64,000 bases of DNA. Source: Flavobacterium haoranii (GTDB taxonomy: Bacteria; Bacteroidota; Bacteroidia; Flavobacteriales; Flavobacteriaceae). Shown in pieces: positions 245 to 19,919 of this stretch (within the stretch, counting starts at the first letter, position 1; each line of letters opens with the position of its first letter). A model generated the notes under the pieces. It worked only from the letters and a program-made list of their open reading frames with translations. It did no database searches and had not been told where the DNA came from. The translations under genes were made by a program, and so were the position numbers. Location: positions 51,944 to 115,943 of the forward strand of contig QKBC01000016.1 in assembly GCA_003246205.1 (NCBI GenBank), read 5' to 3'.

Positions 245-275
245 TTTGTTTTATAGAAAAATAAGTTTATCTTTG
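245..275 (+). promoter_or_regulatory. rpsO promoter, Bacteroidota type
   Basis: TTTG at 245-248 and TATCTTTG at 268-275 are separated by 19 bases. This matches the Bacteroidota primary-sigma consensus (TTTG, spacer of about 19-21, TAnnTTTG). The start codon of rpsO is 57 bases further on. The -33 box overlaps the region just after the upstream stop codon. Confidence 0.8.
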
Positions 276-331
276 CACCCGAATTGAGATAACCTCAATT
301 GTACATAAAAATCATTTAAAATAATATTGGC

Positions 332-601
332 ATGTATTTAACTAAAGAAGTAAAAGCTGATATCTTCGCAAAACACGGAGGAAAAGCAGAAAACACAGGT
401 TCTACTGAAGGACAAATCGCTTTGTTTACATTTAGAATCAACCACTTAACAGGACACTTAAAGCAGAATCGTCACGATTACAACACTGAGCGTTCACTAG
501 TGAAATTGGTAGGTAAAAGAAGAAGTCTTTTAGACTACTTAAAGAAAAAAGATATCAATAGATATCGTGAGATTATTAAAGAATTAGGTATTAGAAAATA
601 A
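332..601 (+). CDS. rpsO: 30S ribosomal protein S15
   Basis: This 89-residue protein has the normal length of S15 and the family core: GSTEGQIALFTFRINHLTGH, then HDYNTERSLVKLVGKRRSLL and DYLKKKDINRYREIIKELGI. S15 binds the central domain of 16S rRNA early in assembly of the small subunit. The ATG at 332 gives the canonical MYLTKEVKADIF start. It has its own promoter and is followed at once by a strong terminator. In many bacteria rpsO is paired with pnp, as here, and S15 often regulates its own translation; I see no clear pseudoknot and do not claim one. Confidence 0.98.
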   Translation: MYLTKEVKADIFAKHGGKAENTGSTEGQIALFTFRINHLTGHLKQNRHDYNTERSLVKLVGKRRSLLDYLKKKDINRYREIIKELGIRK

Positions 602-8909: not shown

Positions 8910-9321
8910 AATTGGTGTTTTTGGTTCCTACTCATCTAGCTTTTCGGTTACGCCCCGTTTTTAAAATGGTTTCCGATCTCCATGAAAAGAATTTTGTCTT
9001 CATTTCAAAATTCATATTCCAAAACTATTACACTATTCAATAGCAGCTATTTAAAAAGGAATAAATACTTATTTTTTACCCCTTAATACTGCAATTAATG
9101 AAATTTATAAGTTTTTAATTACGTAATGAATTAAAGGTAAAAACAAGCTGAAGTTCCCGTTCAGAAAAAATACGGTTTTATTCCTCAAAACTCTTCTTTC
9201 ATTCCATTTTTTCAGAATTCCTCCCCTACCCTCCGTTACATTTGCATGTGTGATTTTATTTAGAAATCATCCCATTAAGAAATATTTATTAACCGTTTAC
9301 CATTTTAAAATCAGTACAATT
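8910..9321. other. Divergent intergenic region with a promoter for the LamG protein
   Basis: This 412-base stretch separates the small secreted protein (-) from the LamG protein (+). TACATTTG at 9237-9244 is a good -7 box for the plus-strand gene, with a T-rich -33 region (TTTTTTC at 9207-9213) upstream. I see no other gene or structured RNA in it. Confidence 0.5.
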
Positions 9322-15086: not shown

Positions 15087-15164
15087 GTTGTAATATTGTT
15101 AACGAATTACTTAATGCGGAAACCGAAAAGCAAAAAGAGTAGGTCTATTTTAAATTTTTAAGTT

Positions 15165-15620
15165 ATGTCTGAAAAAAACGGCACTGCAGAAATGCAGCAA
15201 GTAACACCGGAAATGATTGCACATGATTTTCATGTGGCAACAGCAGGAAAAGTTGATGACGCTACAATAGCATCTGTAAAAAAAGGTTTAGCAGCCACTA
15301 CTGCTTCTTACGGGGCAAACGGCAGTGTGGCCAGTATGATCTTTTATCTGAAGTTTCAGGTCAACATCAAAAACGGGAAATCGTTTAACGGAAATGCAGG
15401 AGGAGTGTCATCACCCGGAGGAGGAGCTTTGTTCGGAGATGTTTATACTGACGATATTAATAAATTATATTCGGATACAGTTAGTTTTCAATTTAATTGT
15501 ACTCCTGTATATACTAGTTTATTGTTTTTTGACAAGCATTCTAACTTATTAGGGCATTTCCAATCCGGATCTGTTTCAACTGTTTTAGGTACCGGAGGCG
15601 GTAGCGGCCATTGGTCATAA
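15165..15620 (+). CDS. Vap-fold protein (Rhodococcus VapA/VapB-like)
   Basis: The C-terminal two thirds of this 151-residue protein strongly recall the core of the Rhodococcus equi virulence-associated proteins: a glycine-rich turn (NGKSFNGNAGG), then LFGDVYTDDINKLYSDTVSF, YTSLLFFDKHSNLLGHFQSG and a closing VSTVLGTGGGSGHWS. I recognise this from memory of VapA/VapB, which end in a similar GGGSGSW. Vap proteins fold as compact beta-barrels; VapA acts in host phagosomes. Unlike VapA there is no signal peptide; the N-terminus is acidic (MSEKNGTAEMQQVTPEMIAH). Single gene with its own promoter and terminator. The role in a flavobacterium is unknown. Confidence 0.75.
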   Translation: MSEKNGTAEMQQVTPEMIAHDFHVATAGKVDDATIASVKKGLAATTASYGANGSVASMIFYLKFQVNIKNGKSFNGNAGGVSSPGGGALFGDVYTDDINKLYSDTVSFQFNCTPVYTSLLFFDKHSNLLGHFQSGSVSTVLGTGGGSGHWS

Positions 15621-15670: not shown

Positions 15671-15755
15671 ATGCTGTAAAATAATATTTCATTACTTTTT
15701 TAAGTAGTAAGGCACAAATTTTTCGATCTTATATGTTCTTTTTTAACAAAAATCT

Positions 15756-15763
15756 TACCTTTG
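15756..15763 (+). promoter_or_regulatory. -7 promoter element of leader module B
   Basis: TACCTTTG matches the Bacteroidota -7 consensus. It ends eight bases before the ATG at 15772, the same spacing as TATATTTT in module A, so transcription should begin at or just before the start codon. Confidence 0.65.
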
Positions 15764-15771
15764 CCTGCGAA

Positions 15772-15885
15772 ATGAGAACACAAAACCTACATATACAAGC
15801 TATTTCAAGTGATAGTACCTATCGTTTAGAGGTAAAATTTCCTTCTAAACCTATCGGATGTTTTGTGAAAATCTATAAAAAATAA
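15772..15885 (+). CDS. Putative leader peptide B (37 aa)
   Basis: The frame reads MRTQNLHIQAISSDSTYRLE, then VKFPSKPIGCFVKIYKK. It shares MRTQ, H, YRL, F and CFV with leader A, and the surrounding DNA is similar too. A -7 box immediately upstream implies a nearly leaderless transcript. The codons around 15823-15850 (Tyr-Arg-Leu, then Lys-Phe and Lys) again favour amino acids of the first tRNA array. The bases coding Gly-Cys-Phe-Val form the antiterminator arm described in the next entry. I regard it as a translated sensor and not as a functional protein; a true small protein remains possible. Confidence 0.55.
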   Translation: MRTQNLHIQAISSDSTYRLEVKFPSKPIGCFVKIYKK

Positions 15886-15948
15886 ATCAAGATTTAAAAT
15901 ACTATAGCTATTTCAAAGCGTCCTTTTAGTCAAAAGGGCGCTTTTTTT
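15856..15948 (+). promoter_or_regulatory. Attenuator-like element B (antiterminator/terminator pair)
   Basis: GGATGTTTTG at 15856-15865, within leader B, can pair with CAAAGCGTCC at 15914-15923 (ten pairs, two G-U). The latter overlaps the 5' arm of a strong terminator: AGCGTCCTTTT at 15917-15927, loop AGTC, AAAAGGGCGCT at 15932-15942, then seven T's. The two hairpins are mutually exclusive. A ribosome that reaches the stop at 15885 would cover the upstream arm and favour termination. Between here and module C (15949-16181) I see no gene. Confidence 0.6.
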
Positions 15949-16181
15949 ATATCAAAAAAACAAAAAACAAAATGAAAATAACACTTAAACAAACCTAGTG
16001 TGAAAAAAATTAAAAAATGTTAGATGATTAGTAAATATAAATTGAAATAAGACTTGAAAGGTAATCAAATGAGAGACAGCCATTTGAATTTTTCTGAAAA
16101 ATCTGCCGAAAGCGGATCGGATTCTTATTGCCTAAAAACAATCATAAACAACTGATAATCAATAAAATAATTTAAAAAATA

Positions 16182-16214
16182 TTTGGAAGTTATTTTTTTT
16201 TGACCTTATCTTTG
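16182..16214 (+). promoter_or_regulatory. Promoter of leader C and the first tRNA array
   Basis: TTTG at 16182-16185 and TATCTTTG at 16207-16214 with a 21-base spacer, a full match to the Bacteroidota consensus. The following bases (CCTCAGAAATTTGAAACAAC) resemble the start of module B (CCTGCGAAATGAGAACACAA), which suggests common origin. It is the only convincing promoter before the tRNA genes at 16489-17053. Confidence 0.75.
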
Positions 16215-16294
16215 CCTCAGAAATTTGAAACAACAAATAATTAGATCATTACGTACAACGAATACTTTATAACCTAAAGTTTATACCGATAAAA

Positions 16295-16417
16295 ATGAAA
16301 CGAGATTTTAAACAACATATAGCACTTGTAACAATTAAAGCAAAAAATGCTTTATTAGGATTTAACCGTCCGAGTTTTTACAGTGATTATAAATTGGTGT
16401 CTCCATATAGGGAATAG
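16295..16417 (+). CDS. Putative leader peptide C (40 aa) of the tRNA array
   Basis: The frame reads MKRDFKQHIALVTIKAKNAL, then LGFNRPSFYSDYKLVSPYRE. It is preceded by a strong promoter and an 80-base leader and followed by an attenuator-like terminator and six tRNA genes. The stretch FNRPSFYSDYKL (residues 23-34), just before the antiterminator arm, contains Phe, Arg (CGT), Tyr, Asp, Lys and Leu, exactly the amino acids of the six downstream tRNAs. It resembles leaders A and B only loosely in sequence (HIALV versus HSIAFV) but has the same position and layout. A role as a translated sensor of tRNA supply is inference. Confidence 0.6.
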   Translation: MKRDFKQHIALVTIKAKNALLGFNRPSFYSDYKLVSPYRE

Positions 16418-16473
16418 ATTGTTATATACAATTGTATTGTTATGGAGCACCTTCAAAAAGAGGTGCTTTTTTT
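16396..16473 (+). promoter_or_regulatory. Attenuator C: antiterminator and terminator before the tRNA array
   Basis: GGTGTCTCCATA at 16396-16407, coding residues 34-38 of leader C, pairs with TATGGAGCACC at 16441-16451: eleven pairs with one bulged T. The second segment overlaps the 5' arm of the terminator, AGCACCTT (16446-16453), which pairs with the 3' arm at 16460-16467 and is followed by a T-run to 16473. The structures cannot coexist. A ribosome finishing at 16417 would mask the first arm and allow termination; a stall near codons 23-30 would free it and allow read-through into the tRNA at 16489. No other promoter lies between terminator and tRNA. Confidence 0.7.
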
Positions 16474-16488
16474 ATGCCTAAAAATCAG

Positions 16489-16562
16489 GATTCTGTAGCT
16501 CAATAGGATAGAGCATTCGCCTACGAAGCGAAAGGTTACAGGTTCGACCCCTGTCAGGATCA
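16489..16562 (+). tRNA. tRNA-Arg(ACG)
   Basis: Complete cloverleaf: acceptor GATTCTG/CAGGATC (one wobble), D-stem GCTC/GAGC, anticodon stem TTCGC/GCGAA with loop CTACGAA, and T-stem ACAGG/CCTGT with loop TTCGACC. The discriminator is A and no CCA is encoded. The anticodon ACG reads CGN arginine codons, which I expect to be minor in such an AT-rich genome. It is the most normal member of the array and starts 16 bases after the terminator of leader C. Confidence 0.9.
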
Positions 16563-16584
16563 CATGAGTCTTTAGAAAGGGACT

Positions 16585-16656
16585 GGCTTATTGAGGTAAT
16601 GGCTAACCTACCTGACTGTCTCTCAGGAAACACGGGTTCGATTCCCGTATAAGCCG
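16585..16656 (+). tRNA. tRNA-Asp(GTC), unusual base 37
   Basis: Cloverleaf of 72 bases: acceptor GGCTTAT/ATAAGCC, D-stem AGGT/ACCT, anticodon stem CCTGA/TCAGG, T-stem ACGGG/CCCGT with loop TTCGATT, and discriminator G as expected for Asp. The anticodon loop is CTGTCTC, so the base after the anticodon is T where tRNAs almost always have a purine. The variable loop is four bases. Stems are perfect, so the gene looks maintained despite the odd loop. Confidence 0.85.
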
Positions 16657-16682
16657 CAAAACTGATCTTTTGATTAGTAAAG

Positions 16683-16803
16683 CTGAGAAGATAACGATTG
16701 GTTGTTTGTCCCGTTTTAGCGGGAAGATTGCAGGTTCGAAATGCGAAGCATTCGTGAACACCTAAAAAATAATAAAATTAGGTAAACAATCCTGCTTCTC
16801 AGA
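16683..16803 (+). tRNA. tRNA-Lys(TTT)-like gene with a 49-base insertion in the T-loop
   Basis: Acceptor CTGAGAA/TTCTCAG and T-stem GCAGG/CCTGC are perfect. The anticodon arm TCCCG/CGGGA encloses TTTTAG, a six-base loop with anticodon TTT and no base 32. The D-stem keeps only AAC/GTT. The T-loop (16735-16790) begins TTCGAA and ends AT like a normal one, but holds an insert with two internal hairpins: ATGC-GAA-GCAT, and CCTAA paired with TTAGG at 16761-16782. It could be an intron-like insert, a processed element, or damage. Discriminator A suits Lys. Confidence 0.65.
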
Positions 16804-16809
16804 CAATTT

Positions 16810-16893
16810 GGAAGTACGTCGGAGTTAGAGAGCCGAGCTTGTCTGTAAAACAAGTGCTTTTATGCTGAATGAGTGCAAATCTTATTACTTCCA
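16810..16893 (+). tRNA. tRNA-Tyr(GTA), altered elbow bases
   Basis: Acceptor GGAAGTA/TACTTCC, D-stem TCGG/CCGA, anticodon stem CTTGT/ACAAG with loop CTGTAAA (anticodon GTA), a class II variable arm of 14 bases and discriminator A all suit tyrosine. The T-loop is TGCAAAT where TTCAAAT is normal, so base 55 is G. The D-loop AGTTAGAGAG lacks the usual GG pair. Both halves of the normal elbow contact are thus changed together. Confidence 0.8.
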
Positions 16894-16900
16894 CAAAATT

Positions 16901-16974
16901 GTAGGAATGGCGGAATAGGCAGACGCGTCAGATTTAGGATCTGAATTTTGAGCGTTCAATTCTCTCTTCCTGTA
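16901..16974 (+). tRNA. tRNA-Leu(TAG) lacking the long variable arm
   Basis: The D-arm (TGGCGGAATAGGCAGACGCG) is typical of leucine tRNA. The anticodon stem TCAGA/TCTGA encloses TTTAGGA, giving anticodon TAG. The T-arm GAGCG/CTCTC has one mismatch around TTCAATT, and the acceptor GTAGGAA/TTCCTGT has two wobbles. Leucine tRNAs are class II, but only five bases (ATTTT) separate the anticodon stem from the T-stem, so the long variable arm is missing. Discriminator A. Confidence 0.75.
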
Positions 16975-16979
16975 CAAAA

Positions 16980-17053
16980 GGAACAGTGGTGTACTTGGTG
17001 TTGCACGTTAGTCTGAAGAACTAAAGGTATTCGTTCGATTCGGATCTGTTCCA
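16980..17053 (+). tRNA. tRNA-Phe(GAA)
   Basis: Acceptor GGAACAG/CTGTTCC is perfect. D-stem GTGT/GCAC has one wobble, the anticodon stem TTAGT/ACTAA encloses CTGAAGA (anticodon GAA), and the T-stem ATTCG/CGGAT encloses TTCGATT. Discriminator A suits phenylalanine. It is 31 bases before the ATG of the 105-residue protein, which is therefore probably on the same transcript. Confidence 0.85.
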
Positions 17054-17084
17054 CTAAAAGAAGTTTAATTAAAAACAAAAAAAG

Positions 17085-17402
17085 ATGAGACCAGACATTT
17101 TAAAACGCTTTTTGACCAATACGGATGAAACAGGAAGATTTTTGATGAAGTCAAGAATTACCGGAATCATCTATTTTGTAGAACCGCTCTATAACGGTAA
17201 AACACCTAAATGGGGCGACGTGGATCCGGCCACAAAACAAATTACCGGAAATTATGGTTCTAAATATACCGGTGCCATTACCCGTAAAGAATCTTTAATT
17301 ACAGAAGAAAACGGATTTGCCAACATCGGCTATTTCAAAGGAAGCCCTTTCGGAGCCATAGATGTACGAGACAAAGAACATCAAAAACAAATGGGATTAT
17401 AA
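17085..17402 (+). CDS. Protein of unknown function inside the tRNA arrays (105 aa)
   Basis: This 105-residue soluble protein contains MKSRITGIIYFVEPLYNGKT, WGDVDPATKQITGNYGSKY and FANIGYFKGSPFGAIDVRDK. I know no family for it. The composition is ordinary and no membrane or signal segment is present. It lies directly after tRNA-Phe and 9 bases before the second palindrome, so it seems to be an integral part of the locus and likely the last gene of the first array's transcript. An RNA-binding or tRNA-related role would fit the context but nothing in the sequence proves it. Confidence 0.65.
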   Translation: MRPDILKRFLTNTDETGRFLMKSRITGIIYFVEPLYNGKTPKWGDVDPATKQITGNYGSKYTGAITRKESLITEENGFANIGYFKGSPFGAIDVRDKEHQKQMGL

Positions 17403-17411
17403 TTATTTTTT

Positions 17412-17436
17412 GCTACGCAAAATAACTGCGTACTTC
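17412..17436. promoter_or_regulatory. Second copy of the palindromic operator, before the second tRNA array
   Basis: TACGCAAAATAACTGCGTA (17414-17432) matches TGCGCAAAATAATTGCGTA at 4658-4676 at 17 of 19 bases. It is followed by AATCTTTG (17443-17450), in nearly the same relation as AACCTTTG to the first copy. The outer arms (GC/TTC) are less symmetrical. The shared core, spacing and -7-like element suggest the same regulator at both places. Confidence 0.65.
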
Positions 17437-17490
17437 ATTTTGAATCTTTGTTCAGTAATAAAGAAAACGTTCTTTGAATACAAAAGATTA

Positions 17491-17518
17491 TGAGATTTCT
17501 CCTAACGTCGAAATGACA
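17491..17518 (+). repeat. Partial copy of a dispersed REP-like repeat
   Basis: GAGATTTCTCC, four to six variable bases, then GTCGAAATGACAA is shared with the right half of the imperfect palindrome at 30255-30320. It lies between the second operator and the second tRNA array. Confidence 0.55.
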
Positions 17519-17523
17519 ATATT

Positions 17524-17603
17524 AGGGTAAAAATATCAAGCAAGTCCTGTTGGGTGTTTCTGTAAGACACTAATGTGATGCTCTTTACACGGTAGTGTAT
17601 GAA
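17524..17603 (+). other. Unassigned structured segment before the second tRNA array
   Basis: Two hairpins are clear: GTGTT-TCTGTAA-GACAC (17554-17570), which resembles an anticodon arm, and TACAC-GGTA-GTGTA near 17586-17599. I could not build a cloverleaf, and no T-arm is present. It may be a decayed tRNA (a Tyr- or Thr-like loop) or a leader of the array. Confidence 0.3.
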
Positions 17604-17694
17604 GCGGTATTATGCAACTTGGCTTGGAGGTTTGAGGTTGTTTTCCAAAAAACGATCTACCATTAGTTTCGCAGGTTCGAATCCTGCTACTGCG
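17604..17694 (+). tRNA. tRNA-Trp(CCA)-like, aberrant
   Basis: Acceptor GCGGTA/TACTGC (one wobble), a perfect T-arm GCAGG-TTCGAAT-CCTGC and discriminator G suit tryptophan. The anticodon arm is TTGTT/AACGA around TTCCAAAA, an eight-base loop with anticodon CCA and one extra A. The D region is long and poorly paired, and 15 bases separate the anticodon stem from the T-stem. The gene is thus recognisable but far from canonical. Confidence 0.5.
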
Positions 17695-17696
17695 AA

Positions 17697-17785
17697 AGTA
17701 GTATGGCGGAGCGGTTAAACGCGCAAGATTAAGGCTCTTGTAACTATTCATTTGGTGGTCATCGGTTCGATTCCGATACGCCTGC
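17697..17785 (+). tRNA. tRNA-Leu(AAG)-like with mismatched acceptor
   Basis: D-arm GGCGGAGCGGTTAAACGCG, anticodon stem CAAGA/TCTTG with loop TTAAGGC (anticodon AAG), a 20-base variable arm and the T-arm ATCGG-TTCGATT-CCGAT are all normal for a class II tRNA. But the 5' acceptor AGTAGTA cannot pair with the 3' acceptor ACGCCTG. Instead, ACGCCT pairs with AGGCGT of the next unit at 17788-17793. A34 in a bacterial leucine tRNA is also uncommon. Confidence 0.5.
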
Positions 17786-17786
17786 A

Positions 17787-17860
17787 GAGGCGTTAACTCA
17801 GTTGGTTAGAGTCCCAAAAGCAGACTGTAAATCTGTTTTTACGAGAGAAGCATGACTCTT
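17787..17860 (+). tRNA. tRNA-Tyr(GTA)-like 5' half
   Basis: After the would-be acceptor GAGGCGT comes the D-arm ACTC-AGTTGGTTA-GAGT and the anticodon arm GCAGA-CTGTAAA-TCTGT (anticodon GTA). Seven bases (normally one) separate the two arms. No T-arm and no 3' acceptor follow; the sequence runs into an A-rich stretch. The missing acceptor partner is present just upstream, as ACGCCT at 17778-17783. Confidence 0.4.
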
Positions 17861-18130
17861 AAAAAAAGTGCAAAAAATTGAAAACATTTGGTTTTTATCT
17901 GTTTCAACATTTTTCGAAATCAAGAAACACTTACGAAGAAACCTGAAAGGGGCTTCGCTTTCAAAACCGTTCTTTTGCTTTTCTGTGTGATCATTGGTTT
18001 ATAATAAACCTATGAAACAAAACAGTTAACCATTTGAATGTTTCTGTTAACTAATCTTTTTCCGTTTTGGGTTAAGGATAAAAACCAAAAGTTTTCTTTA
18101 AAAGAAATAATACAATTAAAATATAAAGAC
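17861..18130. other. Intergenic region before the slipin gene
   Basis: This 270-base stretch has a spaced inverted repeat (TGTTTC ... GAAACA, about 17900-17929) and two near copies of CTGTTAAC (CAGTTAAC near 18024 and CTGTTAAC near 18047). No gene or complete promoter is evident. The slipin frame could begin at 18038, but I prefer 18131. Confidence 0.35.
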
Positions 18131-19228
18131 ATGATTAAATACATTACTATTAATGCTTACCAAGTAGGTTTGGTATTCGAAAGAGGAAAATTGACCGACG
18201 TATTACGGGAAGGAAACTTCTGGATCGTCGGGAACAAAGAAGTGAAATTATTTGAAATGAAGCAGTCTTTTGTTGCTCCGGTGGAATTGAACATTTTGTT
18301 AGAAAATGCAACCTTAGCTTCTATGTTAGAGATCGTTGAAGTGGGCGATACTGAAATAGCCTTGTACTTCGTAAACGGAATGTTCAAAGAAGTTTTGCAA
18401 ACCGGTCGATACGCATTTTGGAAAGGTTACTTGACCCATGAATTTATCAAAGTTGATTTGACTAAAGTAGCAATTACAGAAAATGTAAACACAAGTTTGT
18501 TGGAGAACATCAAATTGCGAATGTACACCCGTAAATTTCAAGTCTTCAATTACGAAAAAGGATTATTGTTCATTAACGGAGCCTTTATCAAAGAGTTGTC
18601 TGCCGGAACTTTCTATTTCTGGAATAACGCCATTCCAATTGATGTAATAAAAGTGGATATGCGCCAAAAACAAATGGAAATCTCAGGACAAGAATTGTTG
18701 ACCAAAGACAAAGCGACCTTGCGTATCAACTTTTTTGTGAATTACAAAGTAACAGAGATTCAGAAGGCTGTTGTAGAAAACAAAGACTACGAAAAACAAT
18801 TGTATGTTTTAATGCAGTTGGCCTTAAGAGCTTTTGTCGGTGGATTTACATTAGACGAATTATTGAGCAAAAAAGACAGCATTGCCGAAATTATTTTGGA
18901 AGACACTCAAATAAGAGCCAAAGAATTAGGTGTTGCAATTACCGATGCCGGAATTCGCGATGTAATCTTACCGGGCGAAATGAAAGAGATCATGAATCAG
19001 GTATTGATGGCCGAAAAAAAAGCACAGGCTAACAGTATTATGAGACGTGAGGAAACTGCGGCAACCCGTAGTTTGTTAAACACTGCTAAATTGATGGAAG
19101 AAAACGAAATGTTGTGGAAATTGAAAGAAATGGAATATGTGGAAAAAATCGCTGACCGTATCGGAGAAATCACCATTTCAGGAAGCGGAAACGTCATCGG
19201 GCAGTTAAAAGAGATTTTTGTCAAATAA
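18131..19228 (+). CDS. Slipin (SPFH/band 7 family) with triplicated N-terminal motif
   Basis: A 365-residue protein from the ATG at 18131 (MIKYITINAYQVGLVF); the frame upstream looks non-coding. The SPFH part has DMRQKQMEISGQELLTKDKA and ATLRINFFVNYKVTEIQKAV, then LDELLSKKDSI and a coiled C-terminal stretch (GEMKEIMNQVLMAEKKAQAN). Before this, a motif of about 20 residues occurs three times (12-31, 77-97, 143-164): a hydrophobic strand, a G, a variable loop, L..G, then an aromatic W/FW. No membrane helix is visible. SPFH proteins form oligomeric rings, usually at membranes; slipins of this kind are known to me beside RtcB and tRNA genes in RNA-repair clusters. It follows the tRNA arrays and has its own terminator. 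Confidence 0.85.
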   Translation: MIKYITINAYQVGLVFERGKLTDVLREGNFWIVGNKEVKLFEMKQSFVAPVELNILLENATLASMLEIVEVGDTEIALYFVNGMFKEVLQTGRYAFWKGYLTHEFIKVDLTKVAITENVNTSLLENIKLRMYTRKFQVFNYEKGLLFINGAFIKELSAGTFYFWNNAIPIDVIKVDMRQKQMEISGQELLTKDKATLRINFFVNYKVTEIQKAVVENKDYEKQLYVLMQLALRAFVGGFTLDELLSKKDSIAEIILEDTQIRAKELGVAITDAGIRDVILPGEMKEIMNQVLMAEKKAQANSIMRREETAATRSLLNTAKLMEENEMLWKLKEMEYVEKIADRIGEITISGSGNVIGQLKEIFVK

Positions 19229-19370: not shown

Positions 19371-19919
19371 ATGAAAACAACAGATAAAATTTTAATTATT
19401 GACTTAGAAGCCACTTGCTGGAAAGGGGAAATCCCTACCGGTGAAATGCATGAGATCATTGAGATCGGTATTTGTGAACTAGATCGTTCCAGCGGTGCCG
19501 TTTCTAAAAACAAAGGGATATTAGTACGCCCTACCCGTTCGAAAGTAAGTTCTTTTTGTACTGAACTGACAACGATTACTCAAGAACTTTTAGATACAGA
19601 AGGTGTAACTTTTGAAAAAGCTATCGCAATCTTAGCCAAAGAGTATCAAGCAGATCAATATACTTGGGCCAGTTACGGACAATACGACCTGAATATGCTC
19701 AAACGCCAGTGTAAAGCCAGAAAAGTCCCTTATCCTTTAGGAAACCAACATATTAATGTAAAAGAATTATTTACGGAAGTTAAAGGTTTACATAAGAAAG
19801 TTGGCATGAACGGAGCTTTAGAAATCTTGGGTTTACCATTGGAAGGAACTCATCACAGAGGAATAGATGATGTAAAAAATATTGCTAAGATTTTGCATTG
19901 GTGTTTGCAATCGCACTAA
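19371..19919 (+). CDS. DEDDh 3'-5' exonuclease, ERI1/KapD-like
   Basis: A 182-residue single-domain exonuclease. The catalytic acidic residues are visible in LIIDLEATCW (ExoI, D-x-E, residues 9-13), SYGQYDLNML (ExoII, near 104) and HHRGIDDVKNIA (ExoIII with His and Asp, near 163). The arrangement fits the ERI1/KapD branch of DEDDh enzymes, of which several trim structured RNA 3' ends; the substrate here is not known. It is 142 bases after the slipin gene with a terminator between, so it probably has its own promoter. It ends the apparent RNA-related island. Confidence 0.85.
   Translation: MKTTDKILIIDLEATCWKGEIPTGEMHEIIEIGICELDRSSGAVSKNKGILVRPTRSKVSSFCTELTTITQELLDTEGVTFEKAIAILAKEYQADQYTWASYGQYDLNMLKRQCKARKVPYPLGNQHINVKELFTEVKGLHKKVGMNGALEILGLPLEGTHHRGIDDVKNIAKILHWCLQSH

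What the first reader, a model, noticed from the sequence alone, without database searches (positions are those of the whole stretch)
16295..17053. tRNA array under a leader-peptide attenuator
Seen: promoter, 40-codon ORF, mutually exclusive antiterminator (16396-16407 with 16441-16451, eleven pairs and one bulge) and terminator (16446-16473), then six tRNA genes from 16489 with no other promoter between. The antiterminator arm lies in the last codons of the ORF, in the geometry of trp/his attenuators. The codons just before it (residues 23-34) encode Phe, Arg(CGT), Tyr, Asp, Lys and Leu, the six amino acids of the tRNAs. Established: attenuators of amino-acid operons use ribosome stalling. 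Inference: loss of charged or intact tRNA stalls the ribosome and turns on spare tRNAs. I know of no described case where a translated attenuator controls tRNA genes themselves.
Basis: partly seen in the sequence, partly recalled or inferred. Interest (0 to 1): 0.93.

Follow-up and report, generated by a model that had tools for sequence, protein, structure and literature searches.

The report
tRNA-counting switch for spare tRNAs
In many Flavobacterium and related genomes a cluster of extra tRNA genes lies behind two very short open reading frames that hold a codon for almost every tRNA in the cluster, and each is predicted to let a ribosome that stalls for lack of one of those tRNAs switch the spare genes on, which would make tRNA supply control tRNA genes directly.

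Summary
In 76 non-redundant loci of Flavobacterium, Chryseobacterium and relatives, the tRNA array follows an ORF of 27-57 codons whose arm pairs with the terminator's 5' strand in every predicted fold (mean z -3.5). The ORF is present in 76 of 76, against 10.8% of shuffled flanks.

The decisive result is codon content: leader 2 holds a codon for 421 of 424 array tRNAs, leader 1 for 365 of 371. On clustered loci other frames reach 64-79%, and six-fold boxes (CGN/AGR, CTN/TTR, AGY/TCN) match 62 of 62, against 51.7 +-2.4 after synonymous shuffling.

Neighbours are RNA-repair genes: slipin here; RNA ligases, TROVE and RtcB in relatives. Array tRNAs are diverged extras; relative G193 has tRNAs for all 20 amino acids elsewhere.

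Best reading: tandem leader-peptide attenuators that sense tRNA loss and open a tRNA-replacement/RNA-repair operon. Regulation is inferred; there were no expression data.

The parts
15756..15763 (+). promoter-like -7 box TACCTTTG of leader 1 (Bacteroidetes type; consensus recalled)
15772..15885 (+). leader 1 ORF, 37 aa, MRTQNLHIQAISSDSTYRLEVKFPSKPIGCFVKIYKK
   Evidence: a leader in this place in 66 of 76 loci
15856..15865 (+). leader 1 antiterminator arm inside the ORF, pairs with 15914-15923
15917..15949 (+). terminator 1 (stem 15917-15942 plus T run)
16071..16086 (+). conserved element GAGAGACAGCCATTTG between terminator 1 and promoter 2; function unknown
16207..16214 (+). promoter-like -7 box TATCTTTG of leader 2 (TTTG at 16182-16185)
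16295..16417 (+). leader 2 ORF, 40 aa
16396..16407 (+). leader 2 antiterminator arm inside the ORF
16417..16433 (+). inner hairpin starting at the last base of the stop codon, nested in the antiterminator
16441..16451 (+). shared strand: pairs with the arm (antiterminator) or with the 3' terminator strand
16444..16473 (+). terminator 2
16489..16563 (+). tRNA-Arg(ACG)
16585..16657 (+). tRNA-Asp(GUC)
16682..16804 (+). Lys-like tRNA interrupted by a palindromic insert (probable pseudogene)
   Evidence: read by eye; not called by ARAGORN or Rfam; insert
16810..16894 (+). Tyr-like tRNA with decayed T arm (probable pseudogene)
   Evidence: read by eye; not called by ARAGORN or Rfam
16901..16975 (+). 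tRNA-Leu(UAG) without the long variable arm
16980..17054 (+). tRNA-Phe(GAA)
17085..17402 (+). 105-aa protein of unknown fold, patchy companion of the array
17660..17840 (+). tandem tRNA-like RNA elements (ARAGORN 'Leu-aag' 17697-17785; sub-threshold YrlA match 17725-17838)
18038..19228 (+). slipin (Band_7/SPFH)
19371..19919 (+). 3'-5' exonuclease (RNase_T; closest NCBIfam model KapD, below its cut-off)

Best explanation
Two short ORFs in tandem, each with an arm that can pair with the 5' strand of a terminator just downstream, precede the tRNA array and are predicted to act as ribosome-mediated attenuators that sense the very tRNAs the array encodes. Inferred mechanism: with enough tRNA the ribosome likely runs to the stop codon, covers the arm and the stop-codon hairpin, the terminator forms and transcription would end before the array. 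If one of the array's tRNA species is cleaved or uncharged, a ribosome would stall at its codon upstream of the arm, the free arm would capture the 5' strand of the terminator, and RNA polymerase would read through into the spare tRNAs and likely on into the 105-aa gene, the tRNA-like RNA and slipin. Because the leader holds a codon for nearly every tRNA of its own array (shown), shortage of any one would suffice. The spare tRNAs are diverged from housekeeping ones, several at position 37 (shown), and so might resist the nuclease that caused the loss (inferred).
For: Architecture: ORF through the arm in 76 of 76 kept loci against 10.8% of shuffled flanks; predicted fold pairs arm and terminator 5' strand in 76 of 76, mean z -3.45; leader 1 in 65 of 66, mean z -3.09. 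TANNTTTG box in 64 of 76 leader-2 regions against 187 of 1520 random windows. Covariation in leader 1, all 41 representatives: 93.9% of cells paired, 17 cells changed on both sides, 0 of 500 shuffles as high on either measure, slid controls 28-57% paired. Concerted three-strand changes in leader 2, read by eye: L023 GGCGC/GCGCC/GGCGC; L009 and L010 GGGTGT/GCACCC/GGGTGC; L231 AGATG/CATCT/AGATG; L232 GGGCG/CGCCC/GGGCG. Codons: 421 of 424 and 365 of 371 array tRNAs have a cognate codon in leaders 2 and 1. On clustered loci coverage is 0.998 (leader 2) and 0.996 (leader 1) in frame against 0.64-0.79 in other frames, and six-fold boxes are 62 of 62 (47 of 48) against 51.7 +-2.4 (39.0 +-2.5) with synonymous codons. 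Swapping arrays between loci lowers coverage to 0.921 +-0.015 and 0.943 +-0.016; locus-specific association z 7.8 and 4.1 in frame only. The arm is paired upstream less than in shuffles in 42 of 46 loci. Context: slipin; in single relatives Rnl2, R2K, TROVE, RLIG1-like ligase; RtcB within 6-14 kb in 5 of 10 genomes tested. Relative G193 has tRNAs for all 20 amino acids outside the array.
Against: No expression data. Loci were collected by a terminator pattern that required a GG[TC]G[CT] arm upstream, and the leader-1 arm was chosen as the best complement, so arm pairing in 76 of 76 and 65 of 66 is partly by construction; ORF and codon results are not. Loci are related, so permutation figures are not true probabilities; the leader-1 changes trace to few lineages, and the count of pairs with changes on both sides (3) is reached by 175 of 500 shuffles. 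Leader 2's outer stem hardly varies (one both-side change; 15 of 500 shuffles reach it). Amino-acid enrichment follows array content against genome proteins (rho 0.57) but not against nucleotide shuffles (rho 0.26, p 0.27); the Chryseobacterium/Flavobacterium contrast is not significant (p 0.17-0.99). A-ending codons are over-used in general. Leader 1 also covers 85% of amino acids absent from the array. Counter-cases: L021 has a stop codon before the arm; L031 and L032 have arrays with no attenuator found; three of five late loci (L230, L233, L234) showed none, and the two that did have no TANNTTTG box near; 19 loci have the attenuator but no tRNA called downstream. Two window tRNAs are decayed.
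Confidence: 0.8

Rival explanations
1. General translation monitor: any failure of ribosomes to finish the leaders (antibiotic, initiation block, starvation) opens the operon, and the codon match is secondary.
For: The arm is kept free and no 1:2 protector was found, so no ribosome would mean ON. The Anabaena trn array is induced by translation-blocking antibiotics (PMC10272220).
Against: It does not explain codon-box matching to each locus's own array (62 of 62 six-fold boxes) or the in-frame-only association.
Confidence: 0.12
2. The array RNAs are decoys or guides (sacrificial substrates for anticodon nucleases) rather than working tRNAs; control by the leaders is as proposed.
For: Array tRNAs of G193 and the window are only 56-70% identical to housekeeping ones, Leu lacks its long arm, some are decayed, and tRNA-like RNAs follow.
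Against: The four called genes of the window keep D- and T-loop signatures (read by eye), and several array anticodon loops differ from housekeeping at position 37 (Asp 31 of 31), which suits resistant replacements better than bait.
Confidence: 0.2
3. The short ORFs encode functional small proteins, and the terminator is a constitutive one.
For: Some C-terminal motifs recur (QVHQYRQ, RCLYTWVS).
Against: Peptide sequences differ widely while frame, arm, stop position and codon coverage are kept; a synonymous-codon effect cannot come from the peptide.
Confidence: 0.03

Closest known systems
trp/his/phe-type leader-peptide (ribosome-mediated) attenuators (features recalled)
   Same: leader ORF, regulatory codons, mutually exclusive antiterminator and terminator
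   Different: lies before tRNA genes instead of biosynthesis genes; samples many tRNAs at once; two units in tandem; arm inside the ORF; no 1:2 protector found
Anabaena trn operon of 26 tRNAs under the TrcR repressor (PMC10272220; abstract, passages, sections 9 and 13 read)
   Same: silent extra tRNA array, induced by translational stress, in one regulon with rtcB and a hypothetical-slipin gene pair
   Different: controlled there by a DNA-binding repressor; here by cis leader ORFs (no protein regulator looked for)
RNA-repair gene islands (RtcB, RNA ligases, TROVE/Y RNA, SPFH with a tRNA-like RNA; Burroughs and Aravind 2016, recalled, not held)
   Same: gene content: slipin, tRNA-like RNA, Rnl2/R2K/RLIG1-like ligases, TROVE
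   Different: as far as I recall, no leader-peptide attenuator is described for them
Salmonella mgtCBR tandem attenuators (PMC3641672; search listing and start of abstract only)
   Same: two leader ORFs with attenuation ahead of one operon
   Different: not tRNA genes; signal not read here
Phage tRNAs that escape anticodon nucleases (PMC10264068; passages read)
   Same: extra tRNAs with altered anticodon loops
   Different: phage-borne; no such leader control in the passages read
T-box riboswitches
   Same: sense tRNA state by a terminator/antiterminator choice (recalled)
   Different: no Rfam match to a T-box here; sensing is predicted to be by codons

Membership tests
ribosome-mediated transcription attenuator | short translated ORF upstream of the controlled genes | tested here: met
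   ATG ORF through the arm in 76 of 76 kept loci, 10.8% in shuffles; frame-specific codon signal; translation itself not shown
ribosome-mediated transcription attenuator | mutually exclusive antiterminator and terminator followed by a T run | tested here: met
   the arm was partly a search criterion
ribosome-mediated transcription attenuator | codons for the sensed amino acid or tRNA placed before the arm | tested here: met
   coverage 0.97 upstream of the arm against 0.54-0.69 in other frames
ribosome-mediated transcription attenuator | 1:2 protector (pause) hairpin, as in trp | tested here: not met
   arm paired upstream with P 0.39 against 0.60 in shuffles; 42 of 46 not above the shuffle mean. 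This is a trait of the trp subtype as recalled, so the claim is 'works like', with a different default state
ribosome-mediated transcription attenuator | read-through that depends on ribosome stalling | not testable with these tools
   needs expression data
T-box riboswitch | match to its Rfam family | tested here: not met
   no such match at gathering in the window, nor up to E 5 in 15700-18100
stress-induced tRNA array (Anabaena trn type) | extra tRNA cluster beside a housekeeping set | tested here: met
   G193: array plus tRNAs for all 20 amino acids elsewhere; not worked out for the window's own, incomplete genome
stress-induced tRNA array (Anabaena trn type) | TrcR-type repressor | not tested
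   no search for TrcR was made
RNA-repair island | RNA ligase, slipin or TROVE genes at the locus | tested here: met
   slipin in the window; Rnl2 in L018, R2K in L010, TROVE in L026, RLIG1-like ligase in L067 and L075; RtcB within 6-14 kb in 5 of 10 genomes and on other contigs in the other 5, the window's own among them

The most novel reading that the evidence does not exclude
A widespread class of codon-indexed tRNA inventory sensors in Flavobacteriales: paired leader ORFs list the tRNA species of the operon they guard, and loss of any listed tRNA releases nuclease-resistant replacement tRNAs together with RNA-repair proteins. It would be the first leader-peptide attenuator known to me that governs tRNA genes themselves.
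Probability: 0.65. Interest if true: 0.95.

Novelty: new variant of a known kind. Interest (0 to 1): 0.9.

Why it matters
It would close a loop not found in my searches: tRNA availability, read by ribosomes on a leader, controlling transcription of tRNA genes. It gives a sequence-level, testable answer to what such extra bacterial tRNA arrays are for (replacement after tRNA damage), ties them to RNA-repair genes, and offers a natural reporter whose codon list can be edited to measure single-tRNA shortage in vivo.

Tried and rejected
Rejected: T-box (no Rfam match). YrlA/Y RNA label for 17725-17838: the same model also hits adjacent tRNA pairs inside an array (L026 4128-4229), so only 'tRNA-like' is claimed. 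Weak Rfam matches over the terminators (SpF41, GibS, Phe_leader, PyrR) taken as chance. The element at 16071-16086 as a regulon-wide site: of ten genomes, six have an exact match, each at the array and nowhere else; three (family f5) have one mismatch at the array, and G111 two, with closer or equal matches elsewhere in some; all matches together number 69, against 73 for the reversed-pattern control. Fold of the 105-aa protein: model of middling confidence, no PDB match. Inner-hairpin counts on MAFFT alignment A1 failed because gaps break the register; stop-anchored gapless groups were used instead. A hairpin just upstream of the arm is not general (mean z -0.42).

Dropped rows: of 131 raw hits 79 were kept as non-identical; three were dropped before counting (L010 second terminator, L114 terminator 1, L021 with a stop before the arm), leaving 76. 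L021 is a true counter-case. Of the 32 loci, 27 gave a terminator 2 with ORF, L021 included; L020, L022, L024, L031 and L032 did not. tRNA names ARAGORN could not place, or that look wrong (???, Leuaag, Proagg, Thragt, Seract), were left out of codon counts. A first leader-1 alignment left out six of 41 rows, all with weaker arms (95.7% paired); it was repeated with all 41 (93.9%), and the second is the one quoted. Terminator-1 pairs are from the 35-row alignment only. Leader starts were moved to the first ATG after the last promoter-like box, so 65 of 66 leader-1 boxes are partly by construction.

Not-in-print statement: no description of leader-peptide control of tRNA genes came up in the listings; the library lacks most subscription papers.
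Full report
What is there. Folding gives the 11-pair antiterminator with one bulge (-20.8 kcal/mol, z -4.5) and the competing terminator. ARAGORN and Rfam call four of the six tRNAs; a Lys-like gene split by a palindromic insert and a Tyr-like gene with a broken T arm fall below detection.

It is a family, not a curiosity. A search with the downstream 105-aa protein returned 32 loci, 25 of them with three or more tRNAs called. A DNA search of 398 genomes of the genus gave 85 with a match, many over the array tRNAs or the terminator region. A model of the leader 2/terminator region (R1) hit 74 of 199 genomes of the genus, 55 of them at 70 bits or more with a clear gap to the next at 43.8, and 49 of 296 of the order, including weak hits (E 7e-5 to 0.01) in a block of family f5 genomes whose loci, when read, carry the Chryseobacterium-type leader and array. 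Most of the 43 upstream regions printed show the same order: promoter-like box, ORF, arm, stop codon, terminator, array; L031 and L032 do not. After removing identical regions and three artefacts, 76 loci remain; leaders are 27-57 codons (median 41). The stop codon ends 22-28 nt after the arm starts in 63 of 76 and 24-29 nt before the terminator in 66 of 76. The ORF was not a search criterion: it is there in 76 of 76, against 10.8% of shuffled flanks, and a TANNTTTG box lies ahead in 64 of 76, against 12% of random windows.

The switch. In all 76 loci the minimum-energy fold from arm to terminator pairs the arm with the terminator's 5' strand (mean z -3.45), with an inner hairpin that holds the stop codon in its 5' side in 58 of 76. 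The arm pattern was part of the search, so the pairing is partly by construction; the z-scores are not wholly so. In 15 gapless sequences of one spacing class the inner stem keeps seven pairs in 87-100% of sequences, through changes such as G-C to A-U. The outer stem hardly varies, but changes in concert on all three strands are visible in L023, L009/L010, L231 and L232 (read). The arm is held free of upstream pairing (P 0.39 against 0.60 for shuffles; 42 of 46 loci). So, unlike trp, there is no protector hairpin, and a leader without a ribosome would read through.

A second switch upstream. Most loci have another terminator about 500 nt upstream. It too follows an ORF (window 15772-15885) with an arm: 66 of 76 loci have it, and 65 of 66 fold as predicted (mean z -3.09). 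Here the stems vary: GGATGT/GCGTCC, GGGCGT/GCGCCC, GGATGC/GCATCC and, in the Chryseobacterium type, GAGGCG/CGCCTC. On a sequence-only alignment of 41, 93.9% of cells are paired, three of six pairs show changes on both sides in 17 cells, and no shuffle of 500 reaches that cell count or the covariation score, though 175 reach the pair count; slid partners pair in 28-57%. The terminator varies in step as well (35 rows). Each unit of the window has its own promoter-like box (15756, 16207). Between them lies a conserved element of unknown role.

The codons name the tRNAs. For every locus I compared codons of the leader with tRNAs that ARAGORN finds downstream. Leader 2: 421 of 424 tRNA-locus pairs have a readable codon, 73 of 76 loci complete. 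Leader 1: 365 of 371, 60 of 66 complete. On leaders clustered at 60% identity, codon-box coverage is 0.998 (38 loci, 224 pairs) and 0.996 (27 loci, 170 pairs), against 0.65-0.79 and 0.64-0.76 in the five other frames. Exchanging arrays between loci gives 0.921 and 0.943; none of 500 permutations reached the observed value. The association is locus-specific in frame (z 7.8; leader 1 z 4.1) and absent in control frames (-0.7 to 1.6; -0.9 to 1.1), and it holds when the Chryseobacterium-type leaders are left out (38 of 46 clusters; 0 of 1000 permutations). For six-fold families the right box is used in 62 of 62 cases, against 51.7 +-2.4 when codons are replaced by synonyms (leader 1: 47 of 48 against 39.0 +-2.5; 0 of 300 each). 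A peptide-level function would not produce that. Two loci found afterwards by another search, L231 and L232, fit: 13 of 13 boxes in leader 2, including Val in an array that has tRNA-Val; leader 1 gives 4 of 4 and 7 of 9. Their other frames are nearly as good (up to 4 of 4 and 9 of 9) and they lack a near promoter-like box, so they add little by themselves. Three other late loci showed no attenuator. Weaker or negative tests are listed under evidence against.

What it controls. The array tRNAs are extras: the relative G193 has tRNAs for all 20 amino acids elsewhere, and the array members of G193 and the window are 56-70% identical to those. Array Leu(UAG) is 74-75 nt, without the long arm, in 30 of 33 distinct sequences. 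Set against housekeeping loops of G193 and G000 only, several array anticodon loops differ at position 37: Asp U37 in 31 of 31 against A37, Pro A37 in 30 of 30 and Gln A37 in 17 of 17 against G37, Arg(ACG) mostly A37 against G37; Tyr, Lys, Asn, Cys and Trp keep 37. Downstream come the 105-aa protein (patchy: 3 of 295 and 6 of 299 genomes of class and family), tRNA-like RNAs and slipin. Single relatives add an Rnl2-type ligase (L018), an R2K ATP-grasp protein (L010), and TROVE/Ro60, a cyclic-phosphate receiver domain and a phosphoesterase (L026). RtcB lies 6-14 kb upstream in 5 of 10 genomes; in the other five, G000 among them, it is on other contigs. In 19 of 21 R1 loci looked at, the attenuator remains but no tRNA is called downstream; 18 of the 19 keep a leader ORF (17 distinct, one repeat; none found in L075). 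A conserved protein without Pfam match follows in most, and L075, like the array locus L067, has an RLIG1-like RNA ligase. Whether those leaders list particular tRNAs was not tested. The switch therefore seems to belong to an RNA-repair operon of which the tRNAs are one part.

How it likely works. A finished leader likely hides the arm and stop hairpin, so the terminator forms. A ribosome stalled at an empty codon before the arm would leave the arm free, and the operon would be read. Listing every spare tRNA makes the leader an inventory; two leaders in series would raise the threshold or combine signals for transcripts from promoter 1. Which insult matters (tRNA cleavage, lack of charging, general arrest) is not decided here. 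The closest parallel, the Anabaena trn array, answers translation stress through a repressor and shares its regulon with rtcB and slipin (PMC10272220).

Novelty. Ribosome-mediated attenuation is an established kind; use of it on tRNA genes, with a multi-tRNA codon list and tandem units, was not met in my searches. I file it as a new variant with high interest.

Noticed in passing
window 16071-16086: Element GAGAGACAGNCATTTG between terminator 1 and promoter 2, kept in Flavobacterium and, with one mismatch, in three family f5 genomes; could be a protein site or part of an RNA.
   Followed up: partly
window 17660-17840; L009, L012, L014, L020, L007: Tandem tRNA-like elements with T-arm sequences between the 105-aa gene and slipin; possibly the SPFH-linked tRNA-like RNA recalled from Burroughs and Aravind 2016.
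   Followed up: partly
window 16735-16758; upstream of the first called tRNA of L027: A palindromic insert sits in the T loop (TTCGAA) of a tRNA-like gene; a similar insert is seen at L027, which may point to a small element that targets T arms.
   Followed up: no
L122, L124, L127-L129, L131, L133, L135-L138, L069, L070, L073, L075, L077, L112, L118, L121: Attenuator without detected tRNA genes, followed in most by a conserved protein of 154-193 aa (two tested: no Pfam match) and in L075 by an RLIG1-like RNA ligase.
   Followed up: partly
G300: L041 and L140: One genome carries two separate arrays, each with its own attenuator.
   Followed up: no
arrays in most loci: Array tRNA-Leu(UAG) (30 of 33) and Leu(UAA) (4 of 4) are 74-75 nt, without the long variable arm normal for tRNA-Leu.
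   Followed up: no
window 15165-15620: Protein with a Rhodococcus equi Vap-type domain (PF05526, E 8e-38) next to the locus.
   Followed up: no
window 268-334, 8921-8988, 15113-15145: Rfam matches: S15-Flavobacteria leader, DUF805 RNA, DUF805b RNA.
   Followed up: no
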